A DNA stretch of 64,000 nucleotides, taken from contig JAYKYS010000002.1 of the NCBI GenBank assembly GCA_036924285.1, positions 38,610,501 to 38,674,500 of the forward strand. Direction: 5' to 3'. Below are positions 14,273 to 54,208 of the stretch, piece by piece (position 1 is the stretch's first letter; every line of letters begins with the position of its first letter). The notes beneath the pieces are model-generated. The model was given only the letters and a program-made list of their open reading frames with translations, did not search any database and was not told the origin of the DNA. A program made the translations under genes and the position numbers. The stretch is from Asterella californica. Taxonomy: Eukaryota; Streptophyta; Marchantiopsida; Marchantiales; Aytoniaceae.

Positions 14273-14319
14273 GGCGGGAAGACAGGGGTGTAGAACCTAC
14301 TGTTGAGGTCCCGTCAGAG

Positions 14320-26060: not shown

Positions 26061-26349
26061 TGTCACGTCAGTTTGGGCACCTTGGTTAGGTTGACCAAGT
26101 GCGAAGTGGCGCATCCCGGTAAGGCCCTTAGTGCCGTCAGGACGAGTTGGTGAGAGAGCCCACTAGGGGTAAACTTCGCAGGTAGGGCTTGGAGGCCTTA
26201 GTTCTTTGAGTTGAGCCTTCAAACTCCAGGCTATGGTGGATAGTCTAGTTGAGTGTAACCCGGATTCTCTTCGTGCTTAGAGTGGGTTTGGCTTGACCGT
26301 TTGTGAGTAATCCTTGTTGTGGTGTTGGAGATGGTAATTTCTCTATTCA
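26061..26349 (+). repeat. RT-E left LTR
   Basis: It begins TGTCACGTCAGTTTGGGCAC and ends TTCTCTATTCA. Similarity to 53814-54096 starts exactly at TG and ends a few bases past CA, apart from one 6-base gap. I read these as the paired LTRs. Alternatively the right LTR begins at 53597 and this left copy is truncated. The flanks show no clear target duplication. Confidence 0.65.
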
Positions 26350-28919: not shown

Positions 28920-28934
28920 CCACCCCCTCTGAAT
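28920..28934 (-). other. RT-D polypurine tract
   Basis: On the minus strand TTCAGAGGGGGTGGA directly precedes the TG of the 3' LTR. Its core resembles the tract of RT-C (GGAGGGGGTGAA). Confidence 0.75.
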
Positions 28935-28964
28935 CTGCACATCCTCCGGTATGTGCCATCTAGA

Positions 28965-29585: not shown

Positions 29586-29595
29586 CCGTTACAGG

Positions 29596-31464: not shown

Positions 31465-31578
31465 TTGCCCAATCTGTCTTCTCGGATGAGGACAGGTGGA
31501 CCACCAGTGTCCTGTCTCTCCACAATTATTGCACGCTCCAGGAAGAGGGTTGAGAGGTCGTTGTGATGAAGAAGGTTG

Positions 31579-33159: not shown

Positions 33160-33500
33160 CCACCAGAGTACTGAGAACAGATGTCTCTATTCTTCTACCA
33201 CTAGATCTGGTAGACCAAATGACTGAACAACCAATCACAAGTTCAGAACGTCTTCTTCTCCTGCTTCTGGTTGCACTCACTGCAATCTTCCGAGATCGAG
33301 TCTTCCAAGGAGTTCTTGGAAGCAGGAAGCGGCTTCTTCCAACTCCCCTGAGGTATCTTATCAGCTTCTGGTTGCGGTTCCCGTCTTCTAGCAAGATAGA
33401 GTCCCACAACACATTCAACTACAATCGAAGTTAGTTCGAAACGAACCTAACTAATGGCACACAGATCCAGGAAGCTTAGAACAGAAGTTACTAAGATGAA

Positions 33501-33519
33501 ATCCCCGGCAGCGGCGCCA
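33501..33519 (-). other. RT-B primer binding site for tRNA-Asp
   Basis: On the plus strand ATCCCCGGCAGCGGCGCCA matches, with one difference, the 3' end of plant tRNA-Asp as I know it. On the minus strand this is TGGCGCCGCTGCCGGGGAT, lying five bases after the LTR end. Athila/Tat-type plant Ty3 elements typically use this primer. It fixes the inner boundary of the long LTR. Confidence 0.88.
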
Positions 33520-35167: not shown

Positions 35168-37510
35168 CTACTCTGATTGCTCGGTGGCAATCTCTACATG
35201 ATCTGCTCCTACCGGAGCTACTACCTCGACTTCTGATGGGCTGGGAAGCCCTACACTTACCTCGGGTACCACTGAGGTAGCTTCCCTCTCCTCGCTCTTC
35301 GCTGGCCCTGCTGTTTCTGCGGCTGCATCTTCTTCGGCTTCGACTTCGGAAGACGGAATGGTCTTCTGGGAAGACGAGTTGAATGGTGCGTCTACGGTCT
35401 TCTGAGGCACAGATGCAGTACTAGGGACCATGGCGATCTCATAGGGGTCCGGGGAAGTCGCTTTCTCCACGCGGAATACCTGGGAAGACGGCTCGTCTTC
35501 CTGTCTTCCAGAAGACATCATGTCTTCCGGGGCGTCTTCTGGAGTCTTCTCGTCTTCCAACGCTGTCACCACCAAGTGTACAGCGAGATCCAACTCCTCC
35601 TTCTCCATTCCGGATCCAGTCGAGGGTGCTGGGGCTTGGGAAGATGCGGTTGCAGGTGTCGGAAGTGAAGGAAGACCATAAAGTATCTTCACTCCTTCTA
35701 TCTGTCTATCCAGGTACCTGAACATGCTATCTCTGCATTCCACCAACCTCGTCTTGGACTCGCTGTCCCATTCCCTAGCTAAGGTAAGTAACTTCTTACC
35801 CGCGGTGAAGTTGAACTTCTTCCGAAGCGCTTCTACCGACTGAGCTAGCATCTTCTGCGCACGGACCTCCGCTGCTTCCCTCTGCGTCTTCTCTACTGCA
35901 GCTCGCGCTTCTGCGGCTTCTCGCTGCATTTTCCAAGTGGTCTGCTCTTCTGCGAGGGTAGTGATCTTCTCCCGTACTCGGAGAACTTCCTGATCACGCT
36001 GCTGTACTCGCGTCTGCAACTCCTGGTTGCTCTTCCGAAGTTGCATCGACTCCTTGGCAGAAGCGGCTGCTTCCGCCTTGTACCTGGCTGCAAGCTTCTC
36101 CGTGGTGCGGAGACTAGCTTCCAGCGACTCCGTCTTCTGCTGGCTGTCTTCTTGTCGCAGCAAGGTGCGCAGGCCGAATCCAGGCTGTAAGGGCTTCTCC
36201 TGTGTCCTCGCTCTCCTTTCCAACAACTCCATAGCGGGCTGGATCTCCTTCTGGAAGTAGGCACTGAACTCCTCCAGTCGTCTTCCTGCGGAAGACAAGT
36301 TCATCCCCACCACTCGCTCGAGGGTGTCGACTTCGTCTTCCAGAGGCAAGGGAGCCTCTTCCACCACTACGGCCTTCATCTTCTGCGCACGAGAAGAAGC
36401 TACTCTTCTCATCTTCCCGGGTGGAAGACTCCTCGTGGCAGGAGCGGCTCTCCTCTTTGCGCTTCCTCGCATCGCAATAGGAGTGCTCATCCATCCTTCG
36501 TCTTCTGGAGTCTTCGGAAGACTCCCAGGTGTTACAGAAGCTGTCTTCTGCTCCGATCGGGTACTCAGCAAGTCTTCCTCCGAGTCCGACTCCGATCCTG
36601 AATGGATGAGGGAGATGTGTGTCCTCGGTACACTTCTGTGACTCATCTTCCTCACTGGCGTGGCGTCTTCCGACCCACTAGACTCGTCTTCCCTCACCAG
36701 AAGCGTCTTCTGGTGAGAGCCGGACCTCAGTTGTGGCATCAGAGTGGGAGGGGGCGTTGCTGCTACCTCTCGGTCATCGTCTTCCGAGGTCTCCTCCTTC
36801 ACCTCCTGTCGCTCCGTTGGTCCATACACTGCCAGCTGATCTTCCCTAAGATCCCCCATGGCTACATACAAGTAGCAGAAGAAGGGCGTCAGATGTCCTC
36901 CCGCCGGGGTAGCCCAAGTATGCTAGTATGCTAGTACATAGTTGTGGATATACGCGCCCCAGTAGATTGGCACTCTGTCATCCCACACTGATTCCAGGAA
37001 CTCCACGTCCTGATCTCCTAAGTACCTTGTCTTCTGCGCTTTTCCCTTGGGGAAAAGATGCAGAAACAACTTCGCCAGAAGTCGCTTCTTCGGCTCCCGG
37101 TAAGACTCTATCTTCCAACCGTTCCTCCCCTGCCTGTCTTCCATGAAAAGGCAGGTGGTACTCCCAGGTACATGCCATGAACTCACAATCCTAGGTAAGA
37201 TTTTCTTCTCGTACCAATATCCTCGGTTCTCGGTCTCAGGCCTGTGAAACGCCTTTCGCCACCAGTCTTCTGTCCAGGAAGATGATCTTCCTGGAGCAAC
37301 TCCTGCCTTCGCAGGTACACGGTTATGCGGTGGTAACGCGACCCATACTTCCTCCAGAAGCCTTTGATCTGCGAGGTTCCAGTCCCACAGGAAGAAGTCG
37401 AGACCCAACTCCTTGAGGAAAGGAGTGGCCTCGGCCAATTCTGCCGCTGGTAACACCAAGCCTCGCAGATGCATCGACATACCTGGAAGATCTGCTGCAC
37501 TAAACCACAA
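35168..37510 (-). CDS. LTR-encoded coiled-coil protein of RT-B, one in-frame stop
   Basis: A 781-codon frame is interrupted only by TAG at 36923-36925, beside an 8-bp duplication (ctagcata). No domain I recognise. The N-terminal third is rich in Trp and Leu (HLRGLVLPAAELAEATPFLK, ELGLDFFLWDWN, PGSTTCLFMEDRQGRNGWK). The middle is acidic and Ser-rich with Lys/Arg clusters. A long coiled coil runs at about residues 430-600 with heptad-like Leu/Ala/Glu (EEQTTWKMQREAAEARAAVE) and ends at RKKFNFTAGKKLLTLAREWD. An acidic Pro/Ser tail finishes the protein. It has no zinc knuckle, protease or RT. Protein-level similarity persists in the three other copies. Either the upstream ATG or MSMHLRG (13 residues on) could be the start. 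Confidence 0.65.
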
Positions 37511-38385
37511 GCACCTACTATGAGCTGAAGGCTCAGTCCTTCCCGAGTGCCCACAGTCTAGCTTCCACTCTCAGAAGACGAAACTAGTCTTCCAGAAGAC
37601 AGCTACTCCGTCTTCCGGGATTCTAACAGTACTTCCTAGATAGCTCTCGTCTTCCGAGCTATATCTAAACAATCCTATCTAAGCAAGGCCTCGCATGGAT
37701 TACCAAGAAGACAACCCACCTTGCATTACATCCTACTTCCTATCAGAAGATACAAGATATGCGAGAAGTAGAGTATGAGAAAGGTTCAGAAGATGGTTGC
37801 GGGCTCCTGCGGTGACAGTGGCCTCTGGGAAGACACTTGGGACAGCTTCCGATTCAATGTCGTTCTCGGAAGACCTCCCGAAGTCAGACTTCCCTTCACT
37901 GGTCTCACCTGTCTTCTTCTTCCTACGCGCAATCTATCCTCACAACAGACTCAAAACATGTGCACTCTGTTCTTCCGACTTCTCACCTCTCATACGCACT
38001 CAGAAGAAGTTTGCTACATGATGGGAAGACATGACCCTCGACCATTCTCTCCGGATTCTGCCAGCAATACTTCTCACAACTCTCTTCTAAGTTCGGGAAG
38101 AAGAAGGAATAGGCTGCTAGGGGTCGGACAGAAGAGACCCGAAATGGACCCTCACGTCTTCTCGCTCATCTTGCCAGTCTTTCAGTCTTCTAGTCTCTCT
38201 AGGAAGATGTGGAGTTGAGAAGCTTGGAAGATCGGGAGGCACAGGCCTAGTTCCCGAGTTCTAACTTCTCGAAATAACACAACAACTCACCACACCACTC
38301 AGGCTTCGTACCAAGTCGCTCTAAACACAAAAGCAAAGCAAATCCACTCTTGATACGAATTGTGTTCAGTCGACTTCTGAAGACA

Positions 38386-38425
38386 GTCTTCCGAAGATGT
38401 CTTCCGAAGATGTCTTCCGAAGATA
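38386..38425. promoter_or_regulatory. Tandem GTCTTCCGAAGAT words in RT-B LTR U3
   Basis: Three direct 13-bp units of GTCTTCCGAAGAT follow each other, and further partial copies lie to 38480. A second cluster lies at 39271-39365, including the 14-bp palindrome GTCTTCCGGAAGAC at 39271-39284. The clusters lie upstream of the LTR coding region in the sense direction, where enhancers would be. Any protein binding is inference. Confidence 0.4.
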
Positions 38426-39514
38426 GTCAAGTTCAGAAAGCGTCTTCCGAAGATGTTCCCATCTTCCGAATCGTCTTCTATTCCAAGTTTCGGGGGTAGA
38501 GAGGTAAGGGGGTAGAGAAATTGATAGTTGGGTTCGCCAATTTGTAGACTAGGGGTAGGGAAGCTCGAATTGAGCTCGGGAAGAAGCAAGGAGATATCTT
38601 GACAGAAATTGGGCAGCGCTTCCGCGCCCAATGTCTCAAACAGAAAGAATGGGGGGTGAGGTAATCGATCAGGCTGCCTGCACACAATCAAGGAAGCGCT
38701 GGGAGTACCAAGAAAATGGCGAGAAGAAGTGGGAGGGGAAAAGAACAGGGGGAAGAACCTCTACAGTCTTCTTCGGCTCCCGAGTTGCCTTCGACCTCCG
38801 CGCGCTTCTGGCTCTTGTCCTAACTTCCAATGCGACTCCTCTCGAATGCGTCTGCTGTCACTTTCGGTCCACACCTCGATTCTACCTTCGCTTCTACTCG
38901 CCACTCTCCACTGTCAACTTCTCGGAAGCTCCACAGAAATGCCTTCGCTCTCTCTGCTGTTTGTGCTCCCGCAATCCGATTTCACCCTTCGTCTAGCTGC
39001 CAACGTACTCTCTACTACTTCGATGTCTTACTCGATTCCTCTCTCAATGCTAGCTCGAAGTTCACTCTCTCAATCGATCTTCTTCAGGCGCACTGTGCTG
39101 TGGGAAGTTGGAAGGTGGAAGGTGGCTAATGTGCTTCCTCACGCATCTTCCCCGCAGATTAGGGGTTCTCGTCCTTGGTGTCTTCCTGACCTACCTACCT
39201 ATTCGGTGCGCTCCAGTAGGTACACCTACTTGTTTATCCGAAAACTCGTGGTCAGGCCTTCGTGATCGCTGTCTTCCGGAAGACAGGTGTCTTCCGCCGT
39301 CTTCTCATCTTCCGAAGACGCAACTGAGAAGATGATCTTCCGAAGACGGTCGTCTTCTGAAGAAGTCAACTTCTTATTACAAACAGCTCTTAAGATCATC
39401 TTCCTGTTAAGGAAGACGTAACCTTAAGTAACAACGCTTCTTCAGTTATATAAACAAGTCATTATTCTGAAAAATTTCAAAAATTCGTGCATCCTATAAT
39501 TTGTGGGCACCACA

Positions 39515-40624
39515 TTGCCCTAGTATCAACTCTGCTGGCATGTAACCTGTAACGGTACTATGGGTTGTACGATCTGCCCACAAAGCAAATGGTAGCAGTC
39601 TAGGCCATTCACGGATCTTACCCTTGCAAGCTTTTACCAAATCTTTGATGATTGGCGGATGACCTCTTTCGCTCTTGCCATTCCCTTCAGGATTGTAAGC
39701 AGTGGTTAACGTCAACTTGATTCCCAATCGCTTGAAGAACTCAACTGCTTCTTGTGAATCCATCTCACCCCTATCTGCAGTGATCTTTCCCACACACCTA
39801 TATCTACAAATAACATCTTCAAGTAGAAAGCGGCAGACACTAGCAATGGTCTTCGTCCTCAAGGCACGGCCTTCAACTTGGTTAGATAGATCTTCTCTAG
39901 CCAAGACTAGATACCTCATTTGTCCAAGCCCAAATGGCATAGTTACCAGATCCACTACCCATTTGTAATGAATGGCTAAAGGATAAGTAGGATGCAATCC
40001 ATCACGATGACGTACGTTGGAATACATCTGGCAAGGTATACAGGATGAAACAAACTGTACTACATCCTTATACATACCCTTCCACCAATACTTCTCCTTC
40101 ATCTTGGCAAATGTAGCCCAAACTCCTCTATGACCGGCCCATAGACTCTCATGAAACTCCTTGATCAGCTGCCGCTGCAATTCCAAGTCACATACCACCC
40201 GTTGCGGTATACCTCCTTGTAGCTTAGGACGCTTCCATAGATGTCCTCCATGTAAAAAGTAACCATAAGCTATTCTACGGATCCTCTTGAAATCTGCATC
40301 AGACCAGCCTTCTTGCCTTTCCAGTGAACTCAAATAGCGTCCAAGATCCAACCACTCGCCATCATACATAGTTTCCTCAAAAAACTCCAACGAGGCTGCA
40401 AAACAGCTTCTATCTCTTCTAGCAAGAGCACTAGAATAGAACTCTGTTCCCACATCCTCTTGATCATCTATCATTTCTTTCTCATTGTAATACCTAGCCC
40501 TTGATAACATATCTGCCACAGGATTGTCTTTTCCTGCAATATGTCTAAACTCTGGGTTCAAGGACTTGATATATGCTATCCACCTCAACATGGCAATATC
40601 TGGAGTTGTACAGCTAGTGATCAT
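39515..40624 (-). pseudogene. pol: RT-D integrase, N-terminal and catalytic part
   Basis: It begins within the RNase H connection (PDIAMLRWIAYIKSLNPEF, VADMLSRARY). The HHCC domain (FHESLWAGHRGVWA, CIPCQM) and the catalytic core follow, with D in VVDLVTMP, D in ADRGEMDS and E in NGKSERG. Reading stops at 39515, where the RT-B LTR begins, so the residues beyond GYMPAELILGQ are foreign. A TGA at 40625-40627 separates it from the RNase H part. The sequence retains Arg at both positions where RT-C has TGA. Confidence 0.9.
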
Positions 40625-40627
40625 TCA

Positions 40628-42408
40628 TAAGAGAGGTAAACAATCTGTCTCCACAACCACAGGTGCTCCTATCAAGTATTCCTTATCACTCTTCATCGCA
40701 GTAACTACTCCCCATAGTTCTCTCTTGACCTGAGGGTAGTCTCTCTACCGTGAACTTAATACCTTAGCACCAAAATGCACCACATATCTATTTCCTTCCT
40801 GATCATCTTGTCCTATAGCCCATCCAATGCCAATAGGACTAGTATCAACAGTAAGGATAACAGATCTGCCCAACTCATATGTTACCTTCCGTAGAGTTGG
40901 TGGTGAAGTCAAAAGATCCTTCAACTTCCTCATAGCCTCGCTTTGCTCCTCTTGCCACTGAAATCTTTGCCCCTTCCTCAGCAGCTTGTACAACGGATCT
41001 GCTACATGAGCAAAGTGTGGAATCCATATATGATAAAACACACATGCACCTAGAAATCTTCTCACCTCGGTAACTGACCCACATGTTTCCTTCATCCTTC
41101 GAATGGCATCAACCTTGTTCGGACAAGGTTTCCGACCATAAGATCCACATAGGTGCCCCACTATTAACACCTCCTGTTCTCCAAATATAGACTTTGCTCC
41201 TGATAAAGTCAAATGAACCTCCTCCAGTCGACTCAATATCTTATCGCAGTCAACTATATGATCTGCAACAAACTTACGGCACCCCCTCTGATCCATTACC
41301 TCATTCTTCTCCTCCTCAGCACATCCTTTGATCGGCACATCATCAAGGAATGGCATAGTTTTTTCAGGAATGAAGTCCCTCAAAACTTTGTTCATGTCAT
41401 TCATCATATGTGCTACAGAATTGGTAGCACCTTGCGGCAAGGTGCACATCCTTAGTAACCCCAAAGGTGTCCTCATTGTAGTCAAGTCTCTACTATCAGA
41501 GGATAACTGAAACTGATCATAACCTGAATATAAGTCTCCCATGGAATAGATAGCACGACCAGCAAAAGCCTCTGCAAACTCGTCTACAATAGGTCCTATA
41601 CCCATATTCCTGATAGTCACCTTGTTCAATGGCTACATATCTTGGATAAATCTCAAAGCTCCACTCTTCTTCGGAACAGTAAACATCTGCTAGAGTAGGG
41701 AGCTATAGATGGTTCCAAGATACCCATCCTAATCCTCTCATTGAGCAAGTCTATCAGATTTGGTAGATGAGCTCTAGGTACAGGGATAGGACGTAGATTC
41801 CAAGGCACATGCGGTATAGTAAAGATTACCATAGGTGCAACTACACTTGGATCTACACATCCTACTTCATGTGACTCAAACGCAAACGCCTTACCATGCC
41901 TAGATAGCATCTCCCTGAAGCTCTTCTTCTCTTGCTCAGTAAGAAATCCATCGCCTCCAATCCTCAGCTCCTTTAGTGTTGTTTCTGTGAACTGGTGCCC
42001 AATTCTTCTCGGTCCTCTGAGCGTCGGTTCTCGTGCAGCTTGCTCCATCTTCTGATTGTAATCGAGTGATAAAGACAAAGCCACTGGTTTGACTTTCTTT
42101 GCCACTGACTTGTACTTGGTCTCCACATACACCTCTTGCCGATCTATAAACTTATCAATTACATCATAAAGCTCCTTGGAGCTCACTCTCACCACTCTAT
42201 CTACACCATCTATAGAACTTTCTACTATAGATTTCAACTCCCCTATAGTATCTACCAAATACTGCTCTTCAAACACTCCAGATATGTATTCATCTCTTGC
42301 TAACTCTCCAATATCCCACAAAGACTGCTGTACATACTTCACATGTTGCCTCTCAAACCTCTTCAGATTCTCAACCTTCCTATAACACACTGATCCACAT
42401 GAAGTCAA
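40628..42408 (-). pseudogene. pol: RT-D reverse transcriptase and RNase H
   Basis: Read downward from 42408: a pre-RT region, then VIFTIPHVPWNLRPIPVPRA and the RT core with CTLPQGATNSVAHMMND and FLDDVPIKG (near 41340). RNase H follows (LTVDTSPIGIGWAIGQDD). A one-base deletion after PYSSR (about 41690) shifts the frame, TAG at 41633-41635 replaces a Gln seen in RT-C, and TAG at 40745-40747 replaces another Gln. The lesions are scattered, so the enzyme was lost by slow decay. Confidence 0.88.
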
Positions 42409-42467
42409 CCCTAAGAAGCTAGTGGATAAAGCTTCATGCTCTACTGGATCAGGCGAGAATCCTATCT

Positions 42468-43393
42468 CTACTGTACCGTTGAAGTCTCGCTCTTCAATGG
42501 TACTCTGCCAAAACCCCTAGACTCTCTAAACTCCTGAGTAATCTTAGGTAGTGGACGGTCTCTCAAGCTATCACGATTCCTCTCATGTTCTGCAGCAACG
42601 GTAAAAAACTGAACAGCTCTTTTGCCGTCTCTACTACGTATCCTAGCATAAGCTGAACCATCATCCATAACTCGTGTCTCCATTCTAACAGCAGTAATGT
42701 AAGGCTGCCCTAGAATGATAGGATAGGTTGACATGTCTTGTACAAAGAAATTCTGAACATCACTGATGTCACCCACAGTTATCTTGATGTTGGGGCAAGC
42801 ACCATAGAGTTCTCCCCGCTGGTTGTTGGCAGCACGGATAAGCCATCCATGGTCGGTGTCTATGGGCCACCTCCTACGCTTGTACAGCTCCTTAGACATC
42901 AGATTAATCTCTGAGCCGTGATCAATCAATGCCACCACAGGTTCCTCTAGATCTCCCAACTTCACCAAGGTCTCTGTGGTTGCTCTTGCCCAATGGTTGT
43001 GAGAGTAATGGCTCTTCGCGATGGCTTCATCTCATCTTCAAACCTCACGTGCTGATACGATCTCCCTTCTGATACTTGAGAGCAGTAACCAGCAATCTCA
43101 TCTTCCTCATCCTCCGACAGTTTGGTCCCTAGAGCGTTAAGCGTAGCTGCTTCACCCAAAATCTGACGTTTCCTCTTGATGATATCTATGATAACCTCAT
43201 GGAACTCACGCTTTGCAATCCCAAGAATCTCACCCAAAGTAAACTCAACCTTCCCATTCAAGATACGATTCTCTAACACCTGCTTCAAGTCTGTAGCAAT
43301 CTCAATGTCAGACTGAAGTTTGTATGCAGGCATCTTACCCTTCTCCTTGCTTCTCTCCTTCTCCTTTGGTGTTGTAGGTGGTAGATCCTCCAT
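42468..43393 (-). pseudogene. pr: RT-D protease region
   Basis: The leader (LPPTTPKEKERSKEKGKMPA, then RKRQILGEA) and an aspartic protease ALIDHGSEINLMSKELYKRR (near 42930-42870) are followed by TYPIILGQPYITAVRMETRV. A frameshift near 42990 separates leader and protease. The active site DHGSE is the same as in RT-C. Homology to RT-C continues to HERNRDSLRD. Confidence 0.85.
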
Positions 43394-43429
43394 AGTCTCC
43401 TCCCGAGTAGGTGTTGTCTCCTGCCTTGC

Positions 43430-44839
43430 CTATGGTCTAGCCCTTTCACTCCTTGTAGCAAGCCGTTTGGCTGTAGAAGCCTCACCTGCATCCTCCCTCC
43501 TACGTTTTTCTTCTAGTACAGCTTCATGCTGACTTCTTGCAACATAAGCATGCACTGACATAGTATCTACAGGGTCATTCCATCCAGTAGTTTCTCTAAT
43601 TGAGTTGCCAACCCTTCGTAGCACATCCTTGTCTAGCTCTGTTCTAGCTACGGACCGCACTACATCTGACCACAACCCAGTAGTCCCTTTCTCTCTCTCC
43701 ATTTCCACTTTCACTCCACACGTAGCAGCATTCACAAGAGAAACAGCATGTGATGCTGATATATCATTCACAAGTCTCTTCATACCACCCTTGCCAAAGT
43801 TGGTTCCCAACATCATCCCAGTCTCTCTCAGATGGATCTTACCATCTTTGAAGAAGATCAGATCCTTCCTCAATGCATCTGAAAACTCCTCACAATCTCT
43901 TCTTACATGGTCTAGGCTATCACATCATATACAACGATGAACAAAGCCTTCTCTCATCTGAGGTCTCTGCATAGCAGACTGTACATTCTGCTCCTTCTCT
44001 TCTAACCTAGTGAGCTTAAGCTTAAGCTCCTTCATACCCTTAATCAACTCATCAAGCGGTGAGTCTTCCTCTCTAGCAATTACCAAAGCGGGCTTAGCAG
44101 GCAACTGCTTGACAGGAATTATCAGAGGTGCTGCTTCACTTACCACCACCTTGTCCCTTCTTCTCTGTCTCTTGGTCAGCAAAGAGACAGCCTCTTCAAC
44201 CTCCTTCCAGTCAGTCTTCAATCCTCTCTCCTCACTCTTGTCTTCCAGCAACAGCTCAAGCTTCTCCTGAATAGTCACGTCCGCTGCTTGTAGGAAAAGC
44301 TCGGTCTTCTCCACCTCTAATGTAAGCTTTTCTGTCCTAGAAAGCTGAGCATACTGACGATCAAATTCCCTTAACAACTCATTTACAGACAAACCTTTGT
44401 TGGGCTTAACCACCCACTCCAAGAACGTTCTCTTGGTCACCCTCTCTGAATCTTCAGTGTAGTACTCCTCCTTCAAAGCTCGCATAAAGCTCTCTCAACT
44501 CTGTCCTTGCTGCTGCTTGAGCTCCTTCACACGCCCACGAATCTCAGGGACAACAGCAAGCTCAAAGTTCTCCACCATCTCCTTCTCAGGCACCTTGTTC
44601 ACCTCCATCTCCCTAGCATAGTATCGCACATACTTGGAAATATCTGTACCCTTGAACAGGTCCATCTGGTGCACCACAGATTGCAACGCCTTGGTTGCTA
44701 ACACCTCCTTCCTCTTTGTGCTCTGCTGCTGCTGCATGAACATGGAAAAAGCCTGGAACATCTTCATCGTAGCAGCATCAAACTGAATAGGTTGCTGAGC
44801 AGCAGCAGCACCTCCACTTGATGATCCTTGGTTGGCCAT
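43430..44839 (-). pseudogene. gag: RT-D gag
   Basis: The ATG at 44837-44839 starts MANQGSSSGG. The capsid-like region has LATKALQSVVHQMDLFKGTD and YAREMEVNKVPEKEM. The zinc knuckle CI-C-DS-DH near 43930-43890 has its Trp codon changed to TGA (43925-43927). Another TGA at 44495-44497 stands where RT-C has Trp in GGWTLFERA, and TAG at 43430-43432 ends the linker segment. A frameshift lies between 43925 and 43873. Function and order are as in RT-C gag. Confidence 0.85.
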
Positions 44840-44890
44840 GATATCTGATCCTGTAACACTCTTAAGAAAACTCCCACCCTAGGTGTTTCA

Positions 44891-44906
44891 CGTCGAGTTC
44901 ACCAAA
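44891..44906 (-). other. Possible RT-D primer binding site
   Basis: On the minus strand TGGTGAACTCGACGTG follows the 5' LTR after a spacer of about nine bases. It begins TGG, but the spacer is longer than usual and I cannot name the tRNA. Confidence 0.4.
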
Positions 44907-44915
44907 AAGAGAGTA

Positions 44916-46197
44916 TGTCGGAGTGTAATCCGTCTACCTAGGAAAGCGCCGGACTTCTGGCTGTGGTTGTTCACTCAAGAGGTTGGCTTTCAGGTCACAA
45001 TAGGGCTATAAACACTCATACAGATGTGTAAGATGTAGTAATATACCCAGAAGGCGAAATTCAGGTCTAGCTGGCAGTAATAGGATTCGGCGGTGAACTT
45101 TGACACTCACGGAGAGGAAAACTATGAAGGTTTAGACCTCTAAACTTCCCCTACATGCAAATGAGGTACTACTGAACTCACAGACGAAATTTCAGCCTGA
45201 GATCAAATTCTGACACGGAGATATGAACAGAAAAGTTTTGAGCAAGAAAACTACGGCAATTTCTGGTACCTAGCTGGCTATTTCAACCTATAACAGGAGT
45301 TTGGCTCGATCAATTTCGAAGTTTCTTACAGGATTTGCAGTCTACAGGGTGCTGAACATCCCTGTGAAGTTGGGACTCCTGAATGTACACAGAACTGTAA
45401 ATCTCCTCCTCTGAAGTCGCTGCTCTAGATTAAGAGCTTTTCAGACCCCCTCAGCTTCAGCGGCCGCCTTGAATTACTCAGTTGCTCAATCGATATGAAA
45501 CTTTTTGTGAAATCGTAGCCCTGCTGGCGGAGAACACAACCTCAAAGTTTTGAAGCAATTTCCTCAAATCTGCTGCGAGTGACACTGAAAACCCTAAATC
45601 CAACCAAAATGATTCAATTCTAGCACAATCCGAACTTCAATTGCTCATAACTCCGTCTTTATTGACTCAAATCGATCGAAATTTTCACTGGAAGTGCTTG
45701 GCATGACGAGACCTCTCTCCCTGTGCTCTCCGATTTCAAAGATCCCTCACCAAATGCTCGAACTCCACTCTAGAGCTATGTTTCTAAATTTAGAGTTTAA
45801 CAAAAGACAAAAATGGACCAATGGGAGTTCATAGCTCCACTTGGTTGTCCTTTAGTACCCTAAACCGCGTGGCAACTTAGTTTTACTCATAGGCTACCAC
45901 GTCAAGCCCCCTAGAGTGCCAACGTAAAACTTAAATTACTTAAAACGACACGCAGCCCCGAAAAATAACTTAAATCAGCTAGAAAGCGTGCATTGGCGAC
46001 ACGCAAATACAACCCATGAGCTTAACCCCTATCAACATGGTAATCAACCTACTAAGACTCAAAATAGTGTTAACACCGTATGCAAAGGTGTCAAACATAT
46101 ACATAAACGACTAAAAGTAATATAAGCTAACTTCTAGAACTACTAAACTCAAGCGTCGGAGTTAAAATATAACATGTAGCCGCCAAGTAGCGCGACA
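44916..46197 (-). repeat. RT-D 5' LTR
   Basis: 1282 bp, matching 27632-28919 with about 20 substitutions by eye and one 6-bp gap. It begins TGTCGCGCTACTTGGCGG on the minus strand at 46197. The right flank CCGT (46198-46201) repeats the left flank of the element. Confidence 0.95.
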
Positions 46198-48858
46198 CCG
46201 TCCTAGTAGGGGATAGGTGAGCTCAGTAAGAGCGGGGTTAGGCAAGTGGTGGTTACGGTGGTGACGGGGATTGCGACATTCCAGTTGGAGAGTGTGTTAG
46301 CGGGATTCTCTCATCACGGAGTTCTCGGGAGGTTCTGGTGGGGACTTCTCGGACAGTGGGTATACACGGAGTGGGGTGAGGTACCGACTACCTACACCAT
46401 TACCGTCGGTTGTTCCAGAGGACGAGTCAGACGCAGACATCGCGTTTTCTGGTGGTGAGTCTAGTGTCGCCACACCGTTGTTGTGGGACATGGACGAGAT
46501 CTATGGGGCCACGAAGGGGCCTCGTCGTTACTCAGGTACAGTTGGTACCATTGAGCTGGATGACTTCATCCAGGAGTTCGACAGTTGGTGCGATCTGCAG
46601 CAGATGCGGACCCACAGCTGTTTACACTCTTCATGGCGTGGAAGGGTTTGTTCCAGCACTTGGAAGGACCGCCGATGGACGATTATCATGAGTTCAGACG
46701 AGATTACAGTGTTGAGATCGAGTTGTGGAGACAACATTGGTCTCCCAACTACGTTTCTATCACTACTGGCACAGTTTCGGGAGGCATAGCACCTGCGAGT
46801 TCGGGTGCTAGTAGCAGTGGTACAGTCGCAGATGGCGGAGTACCTACTACCAGCGGTGCGTCCACAGGTAGTGGAGCAGGTGGTAGTGTGAGTGGGATAC
46901 CACCAGGGTTTAACCATGTGGTTCAGTTCTTCCAATGTTTGAAGAAGAACTATCAGGGTGTGCGGACCGACAAGTTGAAGAGTCTGCAGGAGTTCCAGCG
47001 GAAGACTGGAGAGAGCCTACGCGAGGCGTTTACTCGCATGAGGTGGTTGATCAGCGTTACCCAAGGGGTGACGGAAGCACAGGCAGTCCAGTTCTCGTAT
47101 GGGATACTAGACCGGGAGCTGCGTAGGAGAGTTAGAGATGCTACTCTCCTTAGAGATACCGCTCCGACGTTGGCGGTTGTCTTTAGTCTGGCTGAGCGGA
47201 TTGAGCTCAACATGGTGGAGGAGATGGTGGTGGTTGCTGGGTTCAGCAAGGAGACACCACATGGAGCGACCACCTCTTCTCGAGGATCACAGGCTACGCA
47301 ACAGCGTGGTGGTGGTGGTGGTAATGATCGTGCGGAGCAGTCACGATCTCAGGGAGGTGTTGGAGGATCTGGTGGGCAGAAGCCCATGCCGTCCTTCTCT
47401 AGTCAGCAGCAAGCGGGTCCTTGCTGGACGTGTGATGGTCCTCATCAGCAGAGGGATTGTCCACAGAGGAGAGGTTATGAGAAGTCATGGACATCAGGGA
47501 CGTCTCAAGCAGTACCTAGGCAATGTGAGCATTGCGGACGACCTGGTCACAGTAGTGACCGTTGTTTTGATCTCCATCCCGAGTTGCGGCAAGGAAAGGC
47601 TGATCGTGGACGAGGCGGAGGAGCTCAGGGAGGCCTTGGTGGTCGAGCTGGAGGTAGAGGTCCAGCACCTGGGAGAGGACCGGTCGCTCCACCGCCTGCT
47701 ACGACGTCAGAAGCAGGTATGGCTGCTCGGATTGAGCAGTTGGAGCAGAGGATAACTAGTATGGCTATGGCTCAGCGGAGATCAGGTGGAACAGAGACTT
47801 CCACATCTTATGGAGGAGAAGGAGGTGACTTCGACTTCATGGCTGGTGTGGCGCAGATTGAAGCATCTGCGGCAGTGACTAGAGGTGCAGTACGTGCCTC
47901 TGAGCCACGAGGTGCGTCAGTGGAGTTGGATCCACAACACGGGGAGGCTGGTAGACAGACCAGGCTTCCTCAGTCGTTCACGTTATCGGAGGCGTTGAGG
48001 ACCACATCTATGGTTCCTAAACGGCCTACCGATGGTGTAGTAGAGTTGGAGGCATGGACATCCAGGAGTGGGTGTGATGTGAGTCCACGTTCGACGTCTG
48101 TGGATGCGACGTCAAACCCGATGTTGGGGGCGGCTACAACAGTTTTGAGAGCCCCACTATTCTCAGCCACGGATATGAAGGCATTGGGAGTCAACTTGGC
48201 TCCAGTGTTCCGGTTGGCGGCCACGCTCAGTGAGAACGAGGATGTAGTTACCTCTAGTGCTGAAGTAGTTCAGCGAGAGACGGTAGACGTGTCCATGGAG
48301 TCGAGGATCAGGACAGCTACCAGTGGTACTTGGCAAGCGGCGGCTGCTAGGTTAGATGAGTTACCAGCTAGGCCGGCGATTGACCGTGCTGGTTTGGCAC
48401 CAGGTGTGGTGTTGTTGGACAACAGAAGTGGTATCTTCTGTTTGGTGGCACCTTCAGGGAAAGTGTATCGACCTCAGAAGGTCTTGTTAGACTCTGGAGC
48501 CCAACCGTTGATGTTGGGAAAGGCGGCGTGTATTGGTTTGGGTCTGAAGAAGTCCGAGATAGAGAGATGTCCATTCCAGTTGCAGACATCTCTAGGGGGA
48601 TCAGGAGGTACGGCTCTAGACATGACACGTGAGAAGTTGACGATGAGAGTTTGGCCAGATCACCCCACGGATGGCTCTATGGTGAGGACCAAGATCATAG
48701 TTACAACCGCAGAGTCTTATGATGTATTGGTGGGAGGTGCTGTGTTGTACCCTATGGGGTTCGTGATCGACTATTGGGCGGAGACAACATCTTATAGACC
48801 AGGTTGGCAGTCCGGTGAGAGACGAATGAGCCGCTTTACCAGTGCGGTTCAGTGCTAG
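46198..48858 (+). pseudogene. gag-pr: RT-E gag and protease
   Basis: The second frame is readable from about 46300 (DESDADIAFSGGESSVATPL, then TIELDDFIQEFDSWCDLQQM). Near 46600 it shifts to the first frame (PQLFTLFMAWKGLFQHLEGP), which stays open to TAG 48856-48858. The capsid-like domain ends near 47220. Zinc knuckles are CWTCDGPHQQRDC (CX2CX3HX4C) and CEHCGRPGHSSDRC (CX2CX4HX4C) at about 47420-47570. The protease active site is VLLDSGAQPLMLGK (about 48483-48524), with YDVLVGGAVLYPMGFVIDYW near 48718-48777. It assembles particles and cleaves the polyprotein. Confidence 0.85.
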
Positions 48859-49084: not shown

Positions 49085-50277
49085 GTGCAGCAGGCTTGGA
49101 GTGAAGCCTTTGTACCACCAGTAGAGGAACAAAGGGTTGTTCCTGCTACTGGCCCTGTGACCTTATCACCGTTGGATACGACTCTCATTGTGTGGCAGTA
49201 TCCAGAGGAGGGTATATGTGTGCTGGAGCTGTTTGGAGGGATCAGTACAGGTTTGGCTGCGATATTGCAAGCAGGTATACAAGTACAGCGATACTTGTAT
49301 GTGGAGAGAGATGAGATTGCAAGACGCATCTCATTGCGACATGTGGCACGTTTGGTGCAGAGATATCCTGAGTTGTTGCCCATATCAGCTGTTAGAGGAT
49401 ACCAGCAAGCATTACCGTCGGATATTTCGCTGCTGGGGGCGTAGGATCTTACGTTGGTGGGCACCATTCACTTGGTGATAGTCGGATGGCCATGTCAAGG
49501 TCACACGCGTGCTGGGAGAGGTCAGGGTTTACATGATCCGCGATCTAGGATGTTCTGGGAGATGTTACGGATCTTACGACATCTCCAGATGCATCAGGTG
49601 GATTCTCCAACGTACATCTTGGAGAACGTTCCTTTGTTGGGTGATGCTCGTACACAGATGATGGCGAGTGTGCACCAAGTGCTGTCTTGGATTGGACCAG
49701 CAGTGTTGTTGGATGCAACGAGAATAGGATCTCGTGCACATCGTCCACGGTTGTGGTGGACGAACTTGTTACCGAGAGAGGTGCTTAAGCGAGCACACGA
49801 TGGAGTGAGACGACCAGCACAGTTGATAACATCTTGGATGCAGGACGACGATCTCAAGTAGTGAGAGTCGTCGATAGGTCACCCATGACAGTGGTGAACC
49901 TAGTGGGACGACCCATGGTAGCGTTACCCACTTTGGTAAGCTTTCCAGCGTCACATGCTTATAGAGATGGAGGACCTGGGCTTGTGTGGGATGCTCAATT
50001 ATGGCAGTTGGTGGAGCCCAATGCCGATGAGAGAGAGCGAGCGATGGGTTTCGCTACGGATACGACGGCAGTAGCTTCGGTGTCGGAGGCTTCACGTCGT
50101 CAAATATTGGGTCAAGCAATGGACTTGAATTGCTTGACATGGATTGTTAGCCTTGGATTGGCTGAGCAGCGTCGGATGCGATCGACGGGTGTTACTGCTC
50201 GGACACTCTTGAGCTCTTTGCCTACCGGGTCGGTGGAGGCAAAGGCTGGGGGCGAGGCACATGGAGTTCGTCATCCT
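49085..50277 (+). pseudogene. RT-E C5 cytosine DNA methyltransferase, DNMT3-like
   Basis: Motif I is VLELFGGISTGLAAILQAG (about 49211-49267, AdoMet binding). Motif IV is VIVGWPCQGHTRAGRG with the catalytic Cys at 49493-49495. Motif VI is YILENVPLL (ENV at 49622-49630), and the motif VIII region is GSRAHRPRLWWTNLLP. After a frameshift near 49857 come a target-recognition-like part (LPTLVSFPASHAYRDGGPGL) and motifs IX/X, ERERAMGFATDTTA and RRQILGQAMDLNCLTWI. The spacing and VSAAHRAR-like motif VIII recall DNMT3. TAG at 49442-49444 and the frameshift disable this copy. It sits between protease and RT, so it would be a polyprotein product that methylates cytosine in DNA. Confidence 0.88.
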
Positions 50278-50436
50278 TAGACATCATGGGATGTCGTAAG
50301 AGAGAGTGTGGAGTTTGCAGCTAGAACTGCAGAAGTTTTACGCACAGTAGCGGTGGAGGTTGTTGGTGGTGAGCAGAAGGAAACTGCTCCAGAGGCTGCA
50401 AGATAGCAGTCAACGACTTCGTCTTCTACCTCTAGC
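50278..50436 (+). pseudogene. RT-E linker between methyltransferase and RT
   Basis: This is the same frame as the methyltransferase end and the RT, with TAG at 50278-50280 and 50404-50406. It reads ESVEFAARTAEVLRTVAVEV and a Ser/Thr-rich stretch. The stops would end translation of this copy. Reading through them joins the two domains without a frame change. Confidence 0.6.
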
Positions 50437-52200
50437 ATGGTGACAGAGGATACTTGGGAGCCGGAGATTGGACCCAAGCTTATAGGAGAGGAGAGACGAA
50501 GAGTCCAAAGATTCCTGAAGAGCTACAGGAATTGTTTTGCCTTCAGTATGAAGGATTTGGGTACCTTGAAGGGACCTGGTATACGGATCGACTTGGCTAA
50601 TGACACGTCAATCTTTCGACGTCCTTACAGGTACAGTGACATGGAGAGAGCCCTGATCCAGAGTCGGACTCAAGACTTGTTGGAGGCTGGGTTGGTGGAG
50701 ATGTCGCATGGAGAGTATGCATCTGCCACAGTTATGCCAGCCAAGAAGGATATGTATGGCAACTACACGGATAGACGGATGTGTGGAGACTACCGTCCTA
50801 TCAATCGGCAGACGAAGTCCGATAAGTATGTCATGCCGACACCTGAGGAGATCTTCGATGCAGTGGGGCATGTGAAGGTCTTCAGTACTTTGGATCTTCG
50901 AGCAGGGTATCATCAGTTGCCAGTGAGAGAAGAAGATAAGTCCAAGACAGCATTCTGGGGAATTGACTCTCGCGGCAAGGATTGTTTGTATCAGTGGCGG
51001 TTCTTATCATTTGGGTTGAAGAACGCCCCTGCTGAGTTCCAAAGGGTGATGGACAGAATCCTAGCAGGATTGGATTTTGTCAGATGTTATATTGACGACA
51101 TCTTAGTCTATAGTGCTACAGTGGAGGAGCACGAGAGACACTTACGGGATGTGTTTGAGCGGTTGAGAGCTCATGGGTTGAAGTTACACCCTGGGAAGTG
51201 TAAGTTCTTCCAGGAGTTGGTAGAGTATCTGGGCCACATCATCTGTCCAGGTGGATTGGGTGTTCAACAGACGAAGGTTGAGGCTATTGCACGTATCCCG
51301 CGTCCCACAGATGTGAGTCCAGTTCGAGCATTTGTTGGTTTGGCGAACTTTTATCGTCGGTACGTGAAGGGTTTTAGTGCAATTGCGAAGCCGTTGACCA
51401 AGTTGATGAAGGTGGACCAGGAGTGGCAGTGGGGAGATGAGCAGGAGCGAGCTTTTGTAGAGCTCAAGGATAGATTGACATCTGCTCCCATCTTGAGAAG
51501 ACCCGTTAGGGGGCGTCCTTTCCAACTGCACACAGATTGGAGTATGTTGGGACTTGGAGCAGTGCTGACTCAGCATGATGATGAGAAAAAGGAGTTCGTG
51601 GTGGCGTATGCCAGCCGCTCTAACAATTCAGCGGAGGCAAGGTATAGTTCGTATGAGGGAGAGTGTTTGGCGGCAGTGTGGGCTGTTGCACACTTTCGAT
51701 GTTATCTGTTTGGGAACCCCTTTACTCTCATCACTGATCACCAGCCGCTCAAGTGGTTGATGGAGTCCGACAAGCTTCCAGAGAAGCTTGCACGATGGGC
51801 TCTGATCTTACAGGAGTATGACTTCCAGGTAGTACATAGACCTGGAGTTGCAAACCTAGATGCCGATGGGTTGAGTCGCAACCCGTGCACGAGTCAGCAG
51901 GATCAGACTGGGGCTCGATGGCATGACGAGGTTGATGAGGAGATAGTGCCAAGGTGGCATGCATCTGCCTTTCTTTGTGTGTTGGCCATGAACTCTAGTA
52001 TGGAGGGCCAAGTCGTATCTTTCTCTGGTCAGAGAGTAGATGATGAGTCTCCAGATCCTGAGGGTGGAGATGGTGTTCCAGATCAGCGAGATATCCATGA
52101 TGATGTGACCGTGATGGAGTATCTACGTACTGATGTGGTAGTAGGCACAGTAAGTGCCAAGGAGCGAGATCGTGTCCTTCAACGAGCGAAGAGATTTTGA
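50437..52200 (+). CDS. pol: RT-E reverse transcriptase and RNase H
   Basis: A 587-codon open frame. RT core: VEMSHGEYASATVMPAKKD, YQWRFLSFGLKNAPAEFQRV and the catalytic RCYIDDILVYS (about 51082-51114). The thumb and connection include ARIPRPTDVSPVRAFVGLAN and FYRRYVKGFSAIAKPLTKLM. RNase H: QLHTDWSMLGLGAVLTQHDD, YEGECLAAVWAV, TDHQPLKWLM and NLDADGLSRNP. It is the best preserved enzyme in the window. TGA at 52198-52200, next to another CGA codon, separates it from the integrase in the same frame. Confidence 0.92.
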   Translation: MVTEDTWEPEIGPKLIGEERRRVQRFLKSYRNCFAFSMKDLGTLKGPGIRIDLANDTSIFRRPYRYSDMERALIQSRTQDLLEAGLVEMSHGEYASATVMPAKKDMYGNYTDRRMCGDYRPINRQTKSDKYVMPTPEEIFDAVGHVKVFSTLDLRAGYHQLPVREEDKSKTAFWGIDSRGKDCLYQWRFLSFGLKNAPAEFQRVMDRILAGLDFVRCYIDDILVYSATVEEHERHLRDVFERLRAHGLKLHPGKCKFFQELVEYLGHIICPGGLGVQQTKVEAIARIPRPTDVSPVRAFVGLANFYRRYVKGFSAIAKPLTKLMKVDQEWQWGDEQERAFVELKDRLTSAPILRRPVRGRPFQLHTDWSMLGLGAVLTQHDDEKKEFVVAYASRSNNSAEARYSSYEGECLAAVWAVAHFRCYLFGNPFTLITDHQPLKWLMESDKLPEKLARWALILQEYDFQVVHRPGVANLDADGLSRNPCTSQQDQTGARWHDEVDEEIVPRWHASAFLCVLAMNSSMEGQVVSFSGQRVDDESPDPEGGDGVPDQRDIHDDVTVMEYLRTDVVVGTVSAKERDRVLQRAKRF

Positions 52201-53532
52201 CGAGAAGGACGACATGTACTTCGAGTGTGGGGTGATGGAAGGGTACGGATAGTGCCACATCCATCCCAGAGGGCACAGTTAGTACGACATGCCCATGAGG
52301 AGTTGGGACATTTTGGAGTGAAGCTTACACATAGCTTACTCCAAGGACAGTATTGGTGGCGTGGTATGCACATCGATGTGCAACAGTTTGTCGCACGATG
52401 TGTGATTTGTGATCGAGTAAGAGCATCGTTTAATGCTCCTACTCCACAGTTACACCCCTTACCGATTATGAGGTTGGGTTACCGTTGGAGTTTGGATTTT
52501 GCGGGACCCTTATCGTTGATCGTACGTCACCACCGGTATGTGTTGGTGATGGTGGAGCACTTCTCCAAGTGGATTGAGTTGGTGGCATTACCAGACAAGG
52601 CGAGTGAAAGGACAGCGTACGCGTTCTTAGATCGAGTGCTGAGTCGTTTTGGAGCACCAGCTGAAGTGCTGACAGACCAAGGTACAGAGTTCCTTGGTGA
52701 GTTTCAAGCCTTGTGTGATCAGGCGCTGATTGATCATCGGACTACATCTCGAGATCATCCTGAGGCGGATGGTTTGGCGGAGAGGGTAGTTCAGACGGTG
52801 AAGAGAGGATTGCGCAAGTATGGCTTGCAGAAGGGCCACTTGGGAGACTGGGATGTGCAGTTACCATGGTTGGCTATGGGTTACCGTTTCAGCCGACAAG
52901 CGTCTTTGGCTTCCTTCTCACCGTATTTTCTATTGTATGACCGAGATCCAGATCTACCTTCGGCCATTCGTCGTGATTCTGCTGAGGTGCTGAACCTTGA
53001 TGACCCGGATATGTGAGTGAGAGCATGTTCTCAACGAGCAGAGACATTTCGGAGAGTTATGCCTATGGCTTTTGAGAACCTAGCGATTGCTCAGCATAGA
53101 GACACGTTGCGATATGCGACTATCCGAGGAGGAGGTTATCGGCCGTCGATTCGCAGGTTTCATCCTGGCGATTATATCTATCTACAGCAGACTGCACCGA
53201 CGACGTTGGATGTGACAGCAGGGCGCACTATTTTACGAGTGCGTGAGGTGTTACCTTCTGGAGTACTCATGTTAGAGGGCCGTGATGGTGTTGTTTGGAA
53301 GGACCATGTGCGTAATTGCGCGCCATGTCATCTTCCCAACATTGATGGTACCGTTGACCCAAGCTTAGCAGTTGTACGCGCGGGCTTGAGGTGTATGTTG
53401 TGTGGGTCTGCTGGTGGAGCAGCCCGTATGTTGGTGTGTGATGGTTGTTCGAGAGATTGGCACATGTCATGTTTGACTCCACCTCTCAGTGTAGTTCTTA
53501 CTGGACGGTGGGTTTGTCCTCGATGTATATAG
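52201..53532 (+). pseudogene. pol: RT-E integrase with C-terminal PHD finger
   Basis: In frame with the RT. The HHCC domain (HAHEELGHFGVKLTH, CVICDRVRA) is followed by the rve core with D in SLDFAGPL, D in LTDQGTEFLG and E in EADGLAERVVQ. A TGA at 53014-53016 interrupts the frame. A GPY-like region (FHPGDYIYLQQTAPTTLDVT) is followed at about 53390-53527 by CMLC, CDGC, DWHMSC and WVCPRC. This is a complete C4HC3 PHD-finger pattern, and the protein stops one residue later at 53530-53532. Many Ty3 integrases end in a chromodomain, and here a PHD finger stands in its place. It may guide insertion to particular chromatin. Confidence 0.88.
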
Positions 53533-53596: not shown

Positions 53597-54096
53597 TGTA
53601 GCACCCGGTCTCCTGATCCTTGCACCCATGAAGGTGTGTATCACGTAGTTGGGATATGGAGCTATCTGGAGTTAGAGGGACCTAACCGCCAGTTAGGGAG
53701 GCGATTGTGGTACACTTGTGTATGTGTATGACATCGTCCATGTGTTATGTGTATGTGTGGTGTATCTCTGACAGCGATGTATGTTGTGTAGCGATGTGTA
53801 TGCGCACGACAGCTGTCACGTCAGTTTGGGCACCTTGGCTAGGTTGACCGAGTGCGAAGTGACGCATCCCGATAAGACCGTTAGTGTCGTCAGGGCGAGT
53901 TGGTGAGAGAGCCCACTTGGGATAAACTTCGCAGGTAGGGCTTGGAGGCCTTAGTTCTTTGAGTTGAGCCTTCAAGCTCCAGGCTATGGTGGATAGTCTA
54001 GTTGAGTGTAACCCGGATTCTCTTCGTGCTGGGTTTGGCTTGACCGTTTGTGAGTAATCCTTGTTGTGGTGTTGGAGATGGTAATTTTTCTATTCA
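53597..54096 (+). repeat. RT-E 3' LTR region
   Basis: The part 53814-54096 matches the left LTR at 26061-26349, with the match beginning exactly at TGTCACGTC. The part 53597-53813 has no left-hand counterpart in the window but follows a purine tract and starts TG. Two readings are possible: a 500-bp LTR whose left copy is truncated, or a 283-bp LTR preceded by 3' untranslated sequence. Confidence 0.6.
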
Positions 54097-54208
54097 GATT
54101 ATTGTGGTACACTTGTGTATGTGTATGACATCGTTCATGTGTTATGTGTATGTGTGGTGTATCTCTGACAGCGATGTATGTTGTGTAGCGATGTGTATGC
54201 GCACGACA
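53704..54208. repeat. 108-bp direct repeat flanking the RT-E LTR core
   Basis: Copies at 53704-53811 and 54101-54208 differ at one position and both start ATTGTGGTACACTTGTGTAT. They bracket the 283-bp TGTCACG...ATTCA segment. The downstream copy is probably a partial second LTR left by unequal recombination. Confidence 0.85.

What the first reader, a model, noticed from the sequence alone, without database searches (positions are those of the whole stretch)
49085..50277. DNA cytosine methyltransferase carried inside a Ty3/gypsy polyprotein
Motifs I, IV (catalytic Pro-Cys), VI (ENV), VIII, IX and X of a C5 methyltransferase lie in order between the protease and the RT of RT-E. The motif VIII region and overall spacing are DNMT3-like. 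From established knowledge, retrotransposons with cytosine methyltransferases have been described in charophyte algae and dinoflagellates and proposed to methylate their own DNA. Inference: RT-E belongs to or is close to that charophyte-type family, and an element that writes its own silencing mark may trade activity for tolerance by the host.
Basis: partly seen in the sequence, partly recalled or inferred. Interest (0 to 1): 0.95.

Follow-up and report, generated by a model that had tools for sequence, protein, structure and literature searches.

The report
Liverwort retrotransposon carrying a DNA methyltransferase
A jumping gene with at least 150 copies in a liverwort genome carries its own DNMT3-like DNA methyltransferase domain, kept by selection and shared with elements in Marchantia, Sphagnum and the alga Klebsormidium, and it is predicted to mark its own new DNA copies, although that activity is untested.

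Summary
Confirmed. Window 49190-50178 is a C5 cytosine methyltransferase domain of DNMT3 type (not rearranged like DRM), between protease and RT of a Ty3/gypsy element. The window copy is dead: one stop and one frame change in the domain, and an 18.6-kb nested LTR element splits it. The family is not: at least 150 genome places match the catalytic piece, intact frames exist, and pN/pS is 0.21 (wrong frames 1.06 and 1.55). By matK the host is a complex thalloid liverwort, not a charophyte. Relatives occur in Marchantia, Calypogeia, Sphagnum, a chlorophyte, environmental contigs and Klebsormidium, so KnitGypsy-Dnmt3 (2018) is the known kind. New here: land-plant hosts, said in one review to lack such elements; the domain on the Gag side of an invariant TAG-CAG-TCA stop; a PHD finger ending the integrase; DIRS-like split repeats together with TG..CA ends and 4-bp target duplications. 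Most likely mechanism (inferred): the enzyme rides with Gag into particles and methylates the new cDNA before integration. Activity, substrate and benefit are untested; the window copy's decay shows no CG-specific footprint.

The parts
26057..26060 (.). target-site duplication TCGT, left (right copy 54209-54212)
   Evidence: read; 4-bp duplications in 7 of 7 copies with both ends found, of 10 looked at
26061..26354 (+). terminal repeat A1 (begins TGTC)
   Evidence: matches A2 at 276 of 288 ungapped positions plus a 6-bp gap
26354..26368 (+). primer-site-like stretch at the end of A1, complementary to 26197-26211 inside A1 (12 nt perfect, 15 nt with one mismatch); possible self-primer
   Evidence: function inferred
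27632..46197 (-). nested 18.6-kb LTR element that splits this copy (not part of the element); flanking CCGT at 27628-27631 and 46198-46201; LTRs from 27632 and from 44916
46564..48858 (+). gag with two CCHC knuckles, and protease (about 48365-48754, LDSGA); the open frame ends early in this copy, against a 1370-1371 aa gag-PR-DNMT frame in L067 and L068
49190..50178 (+). DNMT3-type C5 cytosine methyltransferase domain, broken here by one in-frame stop and one frame change
50404..50412 (+). TAG CAG TCA between the DNMT and RT frames (same reading frame in L067 and L068): probable leaky stop of the UAG-CAR-YYA type
   Evidence: invariant in the 55 of 58 loci where the site was found; readthrough inferred
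50407..52200 (+). reverse transcriptase and RNase H
   Evidence: RVT_1 2e-31, RT_RNaseH 3.6e-36
52201..53016 (+). integrase zinc-binding domain and rve core
   Evidence: 7.1e-17 and 3e-15
53392..53526 (+). PHD finger at the integrase C-terminus
   Evidence: PHD 6.6e-11; nearest solved PHDs are those of CHD4, MLL3, ubi-d4 (DPF2), KDM5B, PHF12, DPF3
53690..53703 (+). purine-rich stretch directly before B1 (likely polypurine tract)
   Evidence: function inferred
53704..53811 (+). repeat B1
   Evidence: 107 of 108 identical to B2
53808..53817 (+). palindromic B1/A2 joint GACAGCTGTC, holding both element ends head to tail with GC between
53814..54100 (+). repeat A2
54101..54208 (+). terminal repeat B2 (ends GACA)

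Best explanation
It is a Ty3/gypsy retrotransposon of a liverwort that carries a selected DNMT3-type cytosine methyltransferase domain next to its protease, and the enzyme would likely be packaged with Gag and methylate the element's own new cDNA before integration. Shown: domain identity and order, at least 150 matching places in the genome, purifying selection, the conserved TAG-CAG-TCA stop between the methyltransferase and RT frames, the integrase PHD finger, split A..B-A-B repeats with TG..CA ends and 4-bp target duplications. Inferred: stop readthrough giving much Gag-PR-DNMT and little full-length product; self-primed reverse transcription with an LTR equal to B+A; an intermediate with the two ends joined, opened at the GACAGCTGTC joint by the integrase; cytosine methylation of the cDNA in the particle or nucleus; reading of unmodified H3K4 by the PHD; a new copy that arrives already marked.
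For: DNMT3 identity by HMM and fold. 150 genome places match the catalytic piece (150 scored of 2785 first-look candidates); unbiased by the domain, 8 of 8 RT-fetched loci hold it. pN/pS 0.21 over 30 distinct stop-free, gap-free frames out of 58 loci (31 passed, 9 had stops, 18 were not full-length and gap-free), wrong-frame controls 1.06 and 1.55. Recent insertions exist: A1=A2 and B1=B2 identical in L067 and L068, two copies picked for their long frames. Gag-PR-DNMT in one 1370-1371 aa frame, then TAG, then a 1041 aa RT-RH-INT-PHD frame, same frame, in both; TAGCAGTCA invariant in 55 of 58 loci. A place on the Gag side implies Gag-like dosage in particles, where the cDNA is made (inference). 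An enzyme of another retrotransposon class (SymbioDIRS-Dnmt3) methylates CG de novo in yeast (PMC5890265 section 10).
Against: No activity data here; the K. nitens relative gave no methylation in yeast, judged inconclusive by its authors. The window copy's private changes show no CG-specific decay: C:G transitions 3.6% at CG, 3.4% at CHG, 2.7% at CHH; A/T transitions 1.2%. CpG observed/expected is 0.74-0.76, higher than the window's 0.64. The element is abundant with recent insertions, so any self-silencing is incomplete. MTase pN/pS (0.157) is higher than that of the RT frame (0.081) in the same 7 copies, and picking stop-free frames favours conserved copies. Five Marchantia gene models run DNMT on into RT (P0007, P0010, P0013, P0014, P0016), which may be model artefacts but does not support a conserved stop there.
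Confidence: 0.55

Rival explanations
1. The enzyme methylates cDNA not to silence it but to make it look like host DNA (hiding from nucleases, sensors or deaminases); silencing is a side effect.
For: Fits purifying selection and a successful family with recent insertions. De Mendoza et al. raise the same idea for dinoflagellates.
Against: No host sensor of unmethylated DNA is known to me in liverworts; the other Gypsy RT frames of the window have no such domain near them (no other window piece hits the DNMT profile) and their elements multiplied all the same.
Confidence: 0.25
2. The domain acts on RNA (element RNA or tRNA) or only binds nucleic acid as part of Gag.
For: It sits on the Gag side; the K. 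nitens enzyme gave no DNA methylation in yeast.
Against: Catalytic Cys and ENV strings kept in 53 and 55 of 58 loci; sequence and fold nearest DNMT3, with the tRNA enzymes only at 2e-4 and 3.5e-4 in the profile search.
Confidence: 0.12
3. A passenger domain without function, captured once and drifting.
For: This copy is broken; higher pN/pS than RT.
Against: pN/pS 0.21 against 1.06-1.55 in wrong frames; kept in liverwort, Sphagnum and algal relatives.
Confidence: 0.03
4. The enzyme acts in trans on the host genome, altering host methylation to the element's benefit.
For: High copy number would give dose; suggested for Symbiodinium in print.
Against: Nothing here tests it; the K. nitens methylome was plant-like.
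Confidence: 0.05

Closest known systems
KnitGypsy-Dnmt3 of Klebsormidium nitens (de Mendoza et al. 2018, PMC5890265; abstract and sections 6, 9, 10, 11 read, other passages by term)
   Same: Gypsy domains, non-rearranged DNMT3, DIRS-like repeat layout, purifying selection. A partial K. nitens protein (P0090, KFL_014220010) has gag, PR and the start of DNMT in the same order; its environmental kin P0048 (67% over 95 residues) joins this element in the RT tree at 100/99.
   Different: Host is a land plant; DNMT 40% identical to P0048 and 28% over 89 residues to P0090; this element has a stop between DNMT and RT, which the K. nitens-like proteins P0048, P0062 and P0071 lack; the word PHD does not occur in the 2018 main text (figures and supplements not seen).
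SymbioDIRS-Dnmt3 (Symbiodinium; same paper)
   Same: DNMT3 in a retrotransposon with A-coding-B-A-B repeats.
   Different: Tyrosine recombinase and DIRS RT there; DDE integrase, Gypsy RT and 4-bp target duplications here.
Host DNMT3 and DRM genes of the same genome (L063; L064, L065, L066)
   Same: DNMT3 superfamily catalytic motifs.
   Different: Over one common region of about 100-135 residues every pair among eight retrotransposon domains scores 48-206 bits, and every pair of one of them with host DNMT3, host DRM or human DNMT3A 0-47 bits: not a recent capture from these genes.
Tf1/sushi self-priming Ty3/gypsy elements (recalled)
   Same: A sequence at the primer site pairs with a site in the terminal repeat, the likely RNA 5' end.
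   Different: Here only predicted, from a 12-nt perfect match; no transcript data.

Membership tests
KnitGypsy-Dnmt3 type elements | Ty3/gypsy pol with DDE integrase | tested here: met
   RVT_1, RNase H, H2C2, rve
KnitGypsy-Dnmt3 type elements | DNMT3 domain, motifs not rearranged, between PR and RT | tested here: met
   that K. nitens has it between PR and RT rests on P0090 and P0048
KnitGypsy-Dnmt3 type elements | A-coding-B-A-B repeats | tested here: met
KnitGypsy-Dnmt3 type elements | purifying selection on DNMT (Ka/Ks below 0.2 in K. nitens) | tested here: met
   pooled pN/pS 0.21 (30 sequences) and 0.157 (7 sequences), well below wrong-frame controls though not all below 0.2
KnitGypsy-Dnmt3 type elements | DNMT and RT share ancestry with the K. 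nitens element | tested here: inconclusive
   RT clade 100/99 with P0048, P0062, P0071 (11 rows), P0048 being 67% identical to K. nitens P0090 over 95 DNMT residues; no K. nitens RT sequence was in hand
KnitGypsy-Dnmt3 type elements | DNA methylation activity | not testable with these tools
   inconclusive in print for K. nitens
Canonical Ty3/gypsy LTR element | two like LTRs, tRNA primer site starting TGG after the 5' LTR (recalled) | tested here: not met
   split repeats; the stretch after A1 reads CTCAAAGAACTGAG
Canonical Ty3/gypsy LTR element | TG..CA ends and short target duplication | tested here: met
   4 bp, 7 of 7 copies with both ends found, of 10 looked at
DIRS elements | tyrosine recombinase, no target duplication (the latter recalled) | tested here: not met
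   rve integrase, 4-bp duplications
DNMT3 methyltransferase | motif order I to X with catalytic PC and ENV, DNMT3 fold | tested here: met
DNMT3 methyltransferase | de novo CG methylation | not testable with these tools
   needs an assay
DRM methyltransferase | rearranged motif order | tested here: not met
   host L064, L065, L066 have the C-terminal motifs before motif I, the element's domain has not

The most novel reading that the evidence does not exclude
A portable, split DNMT3: the element pairs a Gag-dosed DNMT3 catalytic domain with an integrase-borne PHD finger of the class that reads unmodified H3K4, rebuilding from two retrotransposon proteins the writer-plus-reader logic of animal DNMT3 (catalytic domain plus ADD). 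New copies would be methylated before or at insertion and steered to chromatin lacking H3K4 methylation, so that the element installs its own silent state. One ancestral capture would have been kept across green algae, mosses and liverworts.
Probability: 0.18. Interest if true: 0.92.

Novelty: new variant of a known kind. Interest (0 to 1): 0.66.

Why it matters
[quoted passage not shown] Here they are abundant, with recent insertions, in a liverwort, and present in Marchantia polymorpha, Calypogeia and Sphagnum protein sets. The open question of what a transposon gains from a DNA methyltransferase thus becomes testable in Marchantia, a genetic model. A M. polymorpha methylome paper counts five methyltransferase genes of three classes (PMC5784723, passage), without these. 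Shared ancestry with K. nitens-like and chlorophyte elements would suggest one old capture with a later move of the domain within pol, instead of a capture limited to the K. nitens lineage.

Tried and rejected
Recent capture from a host gene: rejected; over one common region retrotransposon domains are closer to each other than to the host DNMT3 exon, a host DRM or DNMT3A. A first comparison used host pieces shorter than the retrotransposon domains and was not fair, so it was redone. One-copy capture: rejected. Contamination: unlikely; copies lie on many large contigs and the assembly's matK is liverwort. Host as charophyte: rejected by matK; rbcL only said streptophyte, by my recall of such sequences. 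Methylation footprint by decay: looked for, no CG-specific excess. Rfam scan of the window at gathering thresholds: nothing. DNMT tree rooted with DNMT3A: root not trusted, long branch. Second-layout monophyly: supported in the DNMT tree (100/98), unresolved in the RT tree (one-clade in 16% of bootstrap trees); P0050 and P0064 were put in that layout only because an integrase follows DNMT. Flank fetches missed the ends of two copies through my coordinate error; one search corrected it. Searches for PHD fingers in Gypsy integrases (listing only) and passages of liverwort genome papers showed no report of such elements. Brown-alga and fungal papers seen by passages concern other methyltransferases.

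Full report
What is in the window. Open frames at 49070-49444, 49445-49861 and 49789-50280 carry, in order, motif I (LELFGGISTG), the PCQ of motif IV, ENV, the RAHRPRLWW region and GQAMDLN. Pfam calls DNA_methylase on the middle piece only, and RT, RNase H, integrase and a PHD finger downstream. Against a profile of relatives these three pieces hit at 1.3e-31 or better and none of the other window pieces does (3 of 1228 at E up to 10). The domain in this copy has one in-frame stop and one frame change; intact open frames of the same family exist elsewhere in the genome.

The whole element. Two other copies (L067, L068) show that the window copy begins at 26061 and ends at 54208, split by a nested 18.6-kb LTR element at 27632-46197. 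Without the insert it is 9578 bp; L067 and L068 are 9975 and 9816 bp. The repeats are A1 (294 bp) at the start and B1-GC-A2-B2 at the end, the DIRS-like layout already noted for the Klebsormidium element. Yet the ends are TGTC..GACA, and the seven copies with both ends found all have 4-bp target duplications, all different (TCGT in the window; TCTT and ACCG for L067 and L068; GAGA, ACAG, ACGC, ACAT). Three further copies lacked one or both ends at the expected place. The joint B1-GC-A2 is the palindrome GACAGCTGTC, both ends head to tail. A purine-rich stretch lies before B1 and, at the end of A1, 12 nt (15 with one mismatch) pair with a site inside A1 (in L068 the 12-nt stretch after A1 is kept). 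I infer an LTR equal to B+A, self-primed reverse transcription, and integration from a form in which the ends are joined.

Frames. In L067 and L068 a 1371 or 1370 aa frame (gag, protease, DNMT) is followed in the same frame, after one TAG, by a 1041 aa frame (RT, RNase H, integrase, PHD). The context TAG CAG TCA is invariant in the 55 of 58 loci where the site was found with at most 5 mismatches in 29 bases; by my count from that output the 20 neighbouring bases show 19 differences in the same 55 loci. The 58 loci hold 56 distinct copies: L001/L009 (the window copy) and L016/L042 are the same places, and copies are related, so these are not independent events. UAG-CAR-YYA is, from recall, the tobamovirus-type readthrough context. 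Among relatives, K. nitens-like P0048, P0062 and P0071 run DNMT into RT without a stop, so the Gag-side position belongs to part of the family. Marchantia P0001 ends after DNMT, but five Marchantia gene models run on into RT (P0007, P0010, P0013, P0014, P0016); I had no Marchantia DNA to settle it.

Abundance, age and selection. The RT search scored 73 matches and the search with the catalytic piece 150 (of 2785 first-look candidates); both are lower bounds, ranked by match, so biased to good copies. Stops lie inside 11 of the 150 by my count. A1 and A2 differ at 12 of 288 positions in the window copy and at 0 of 294 in L067 and L068, which were picked for their long frames: some copies inserted recently and this one is older. 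In 58 loci, 31 have an uninterrupted gap-free domain frame (30 distinct), 9 have stops, 18 were not full-length and gap-free; pooled pN/pS is 0.213, against 1.06 and 1.55 in the two wrong frames. In 7 copies with an intact second frame, DNMT gives 0.157 and RT-INT-PHD 0.081. All five motif strings are intact in 34 of 58 loci.

Relatives. One search listed 75 rows, 72 of them new; 36 of the 72 hold the DNMT domain by profile. Two are named Klebsormidium nitens: P0090 with the start of DNMT, P0112 without it. Two layouts exist: of proteins with both domains, 12 have DNMT before RT and 5 after it. In the DNMT tree (67 rows) an 18-row clade at 100/99 holds this element, 11 Marchantia, Calypogeia, Sphagnum and four unnamed rows; the second layout forms a clade at 100/98 (7 rows plus 2 unassigned). 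Over one common region every pair among eight retrotransposon domains (48-206 bits) outscores every pair of one of them with host DNMT3, host DRM or DNMT3A (0-47 bits). In the RT tree (11 rows) nine DNMT-bearing elements separate from two other Gypsy RTs of the window at 100/100. This favours one old capture and one move of the domain; but few host DNMT3s and only two other Gypsy RTs were included, and horizontal transfer is not excluded.

Host. matK is nearest to Wiesnerella (83%, 96% covered), then Dumortiera (86%), Riccia and Conocephalum (82%) over 71-73% of the length, complex thalloid liverworts from recall; Lunularia is at 76%. The species is not identified.

Function. I favour methylation of the element's own cDNA. 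Position with Gag, selection on the domain and activity of another retrotransposon's enzyme support it. Against it stand the lack of any assay, the inconclusive K. nitens test, and the absence of a CG-specific decay footprint in the window copy. The PHD finger's nearest solved relatives (CHD4, MLL3, ubi-d4, KDM5B, PHF12, DPF3; then PHF21A, UHRF1, AIRE) include, from recall, many readers of unmodified H3K4, which is the basis of the bold reading only.

Literature. Full-text searches returned de Mendoza et al. 2018 as the only primary report of such Gypsy elements that I recognised; a 2025 phylogeny refers back to it for streptophytes and dinoflagellates (PMC12344493, passages). No title or passage I saw reports them in liverworts or mosses; I read passages, not whole papers, and subscription papers and preprints are mostly not held, so this does not prove absence in print.

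Noticed in passing
window 27632-46197: Nested 18.6-kb LTR element, two LTRs of about 1.28 kb (99% and 97% over the two stretches compared), TGTCGG..CGACA ends like those of the element it splits; an RT frame on the minus strand.
   Followed up: partly
window 14248-16938 (+) and 40748-41632 (-): Two further Gypsy RT frames, 69% identical to each other and outside the DNMT-bearing clade; RT fragments also at 1-1580 (+).
   Followed up: partly
P0038, P0046, P0052, P0055, P0061: Relatives with GWECQ instead of GWPCQ at the catalytic motif: Glu in place of Pro while the Cys stays; worth an activity test.
   Followed up: no
P0027: A 'bacterial' metagenome protein (Obscuribacterales bin) falls inside this eukaryotic retrotransposon family: probably a mis-binned contig.
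   Followed up: no
P0058 and P0064: Environmental relatives with long extra C-terminal regions: 358 residues after the PHD in P0058, 508 after the integrase and no PHD detected in P0064.
   Followed up: no
contigs C367, C773, C713, C732 and others of G000: Several plastid gene copies (rbcL, matK) sit on small contigs: plastid contigs left in the assembly.
   Followed up: no
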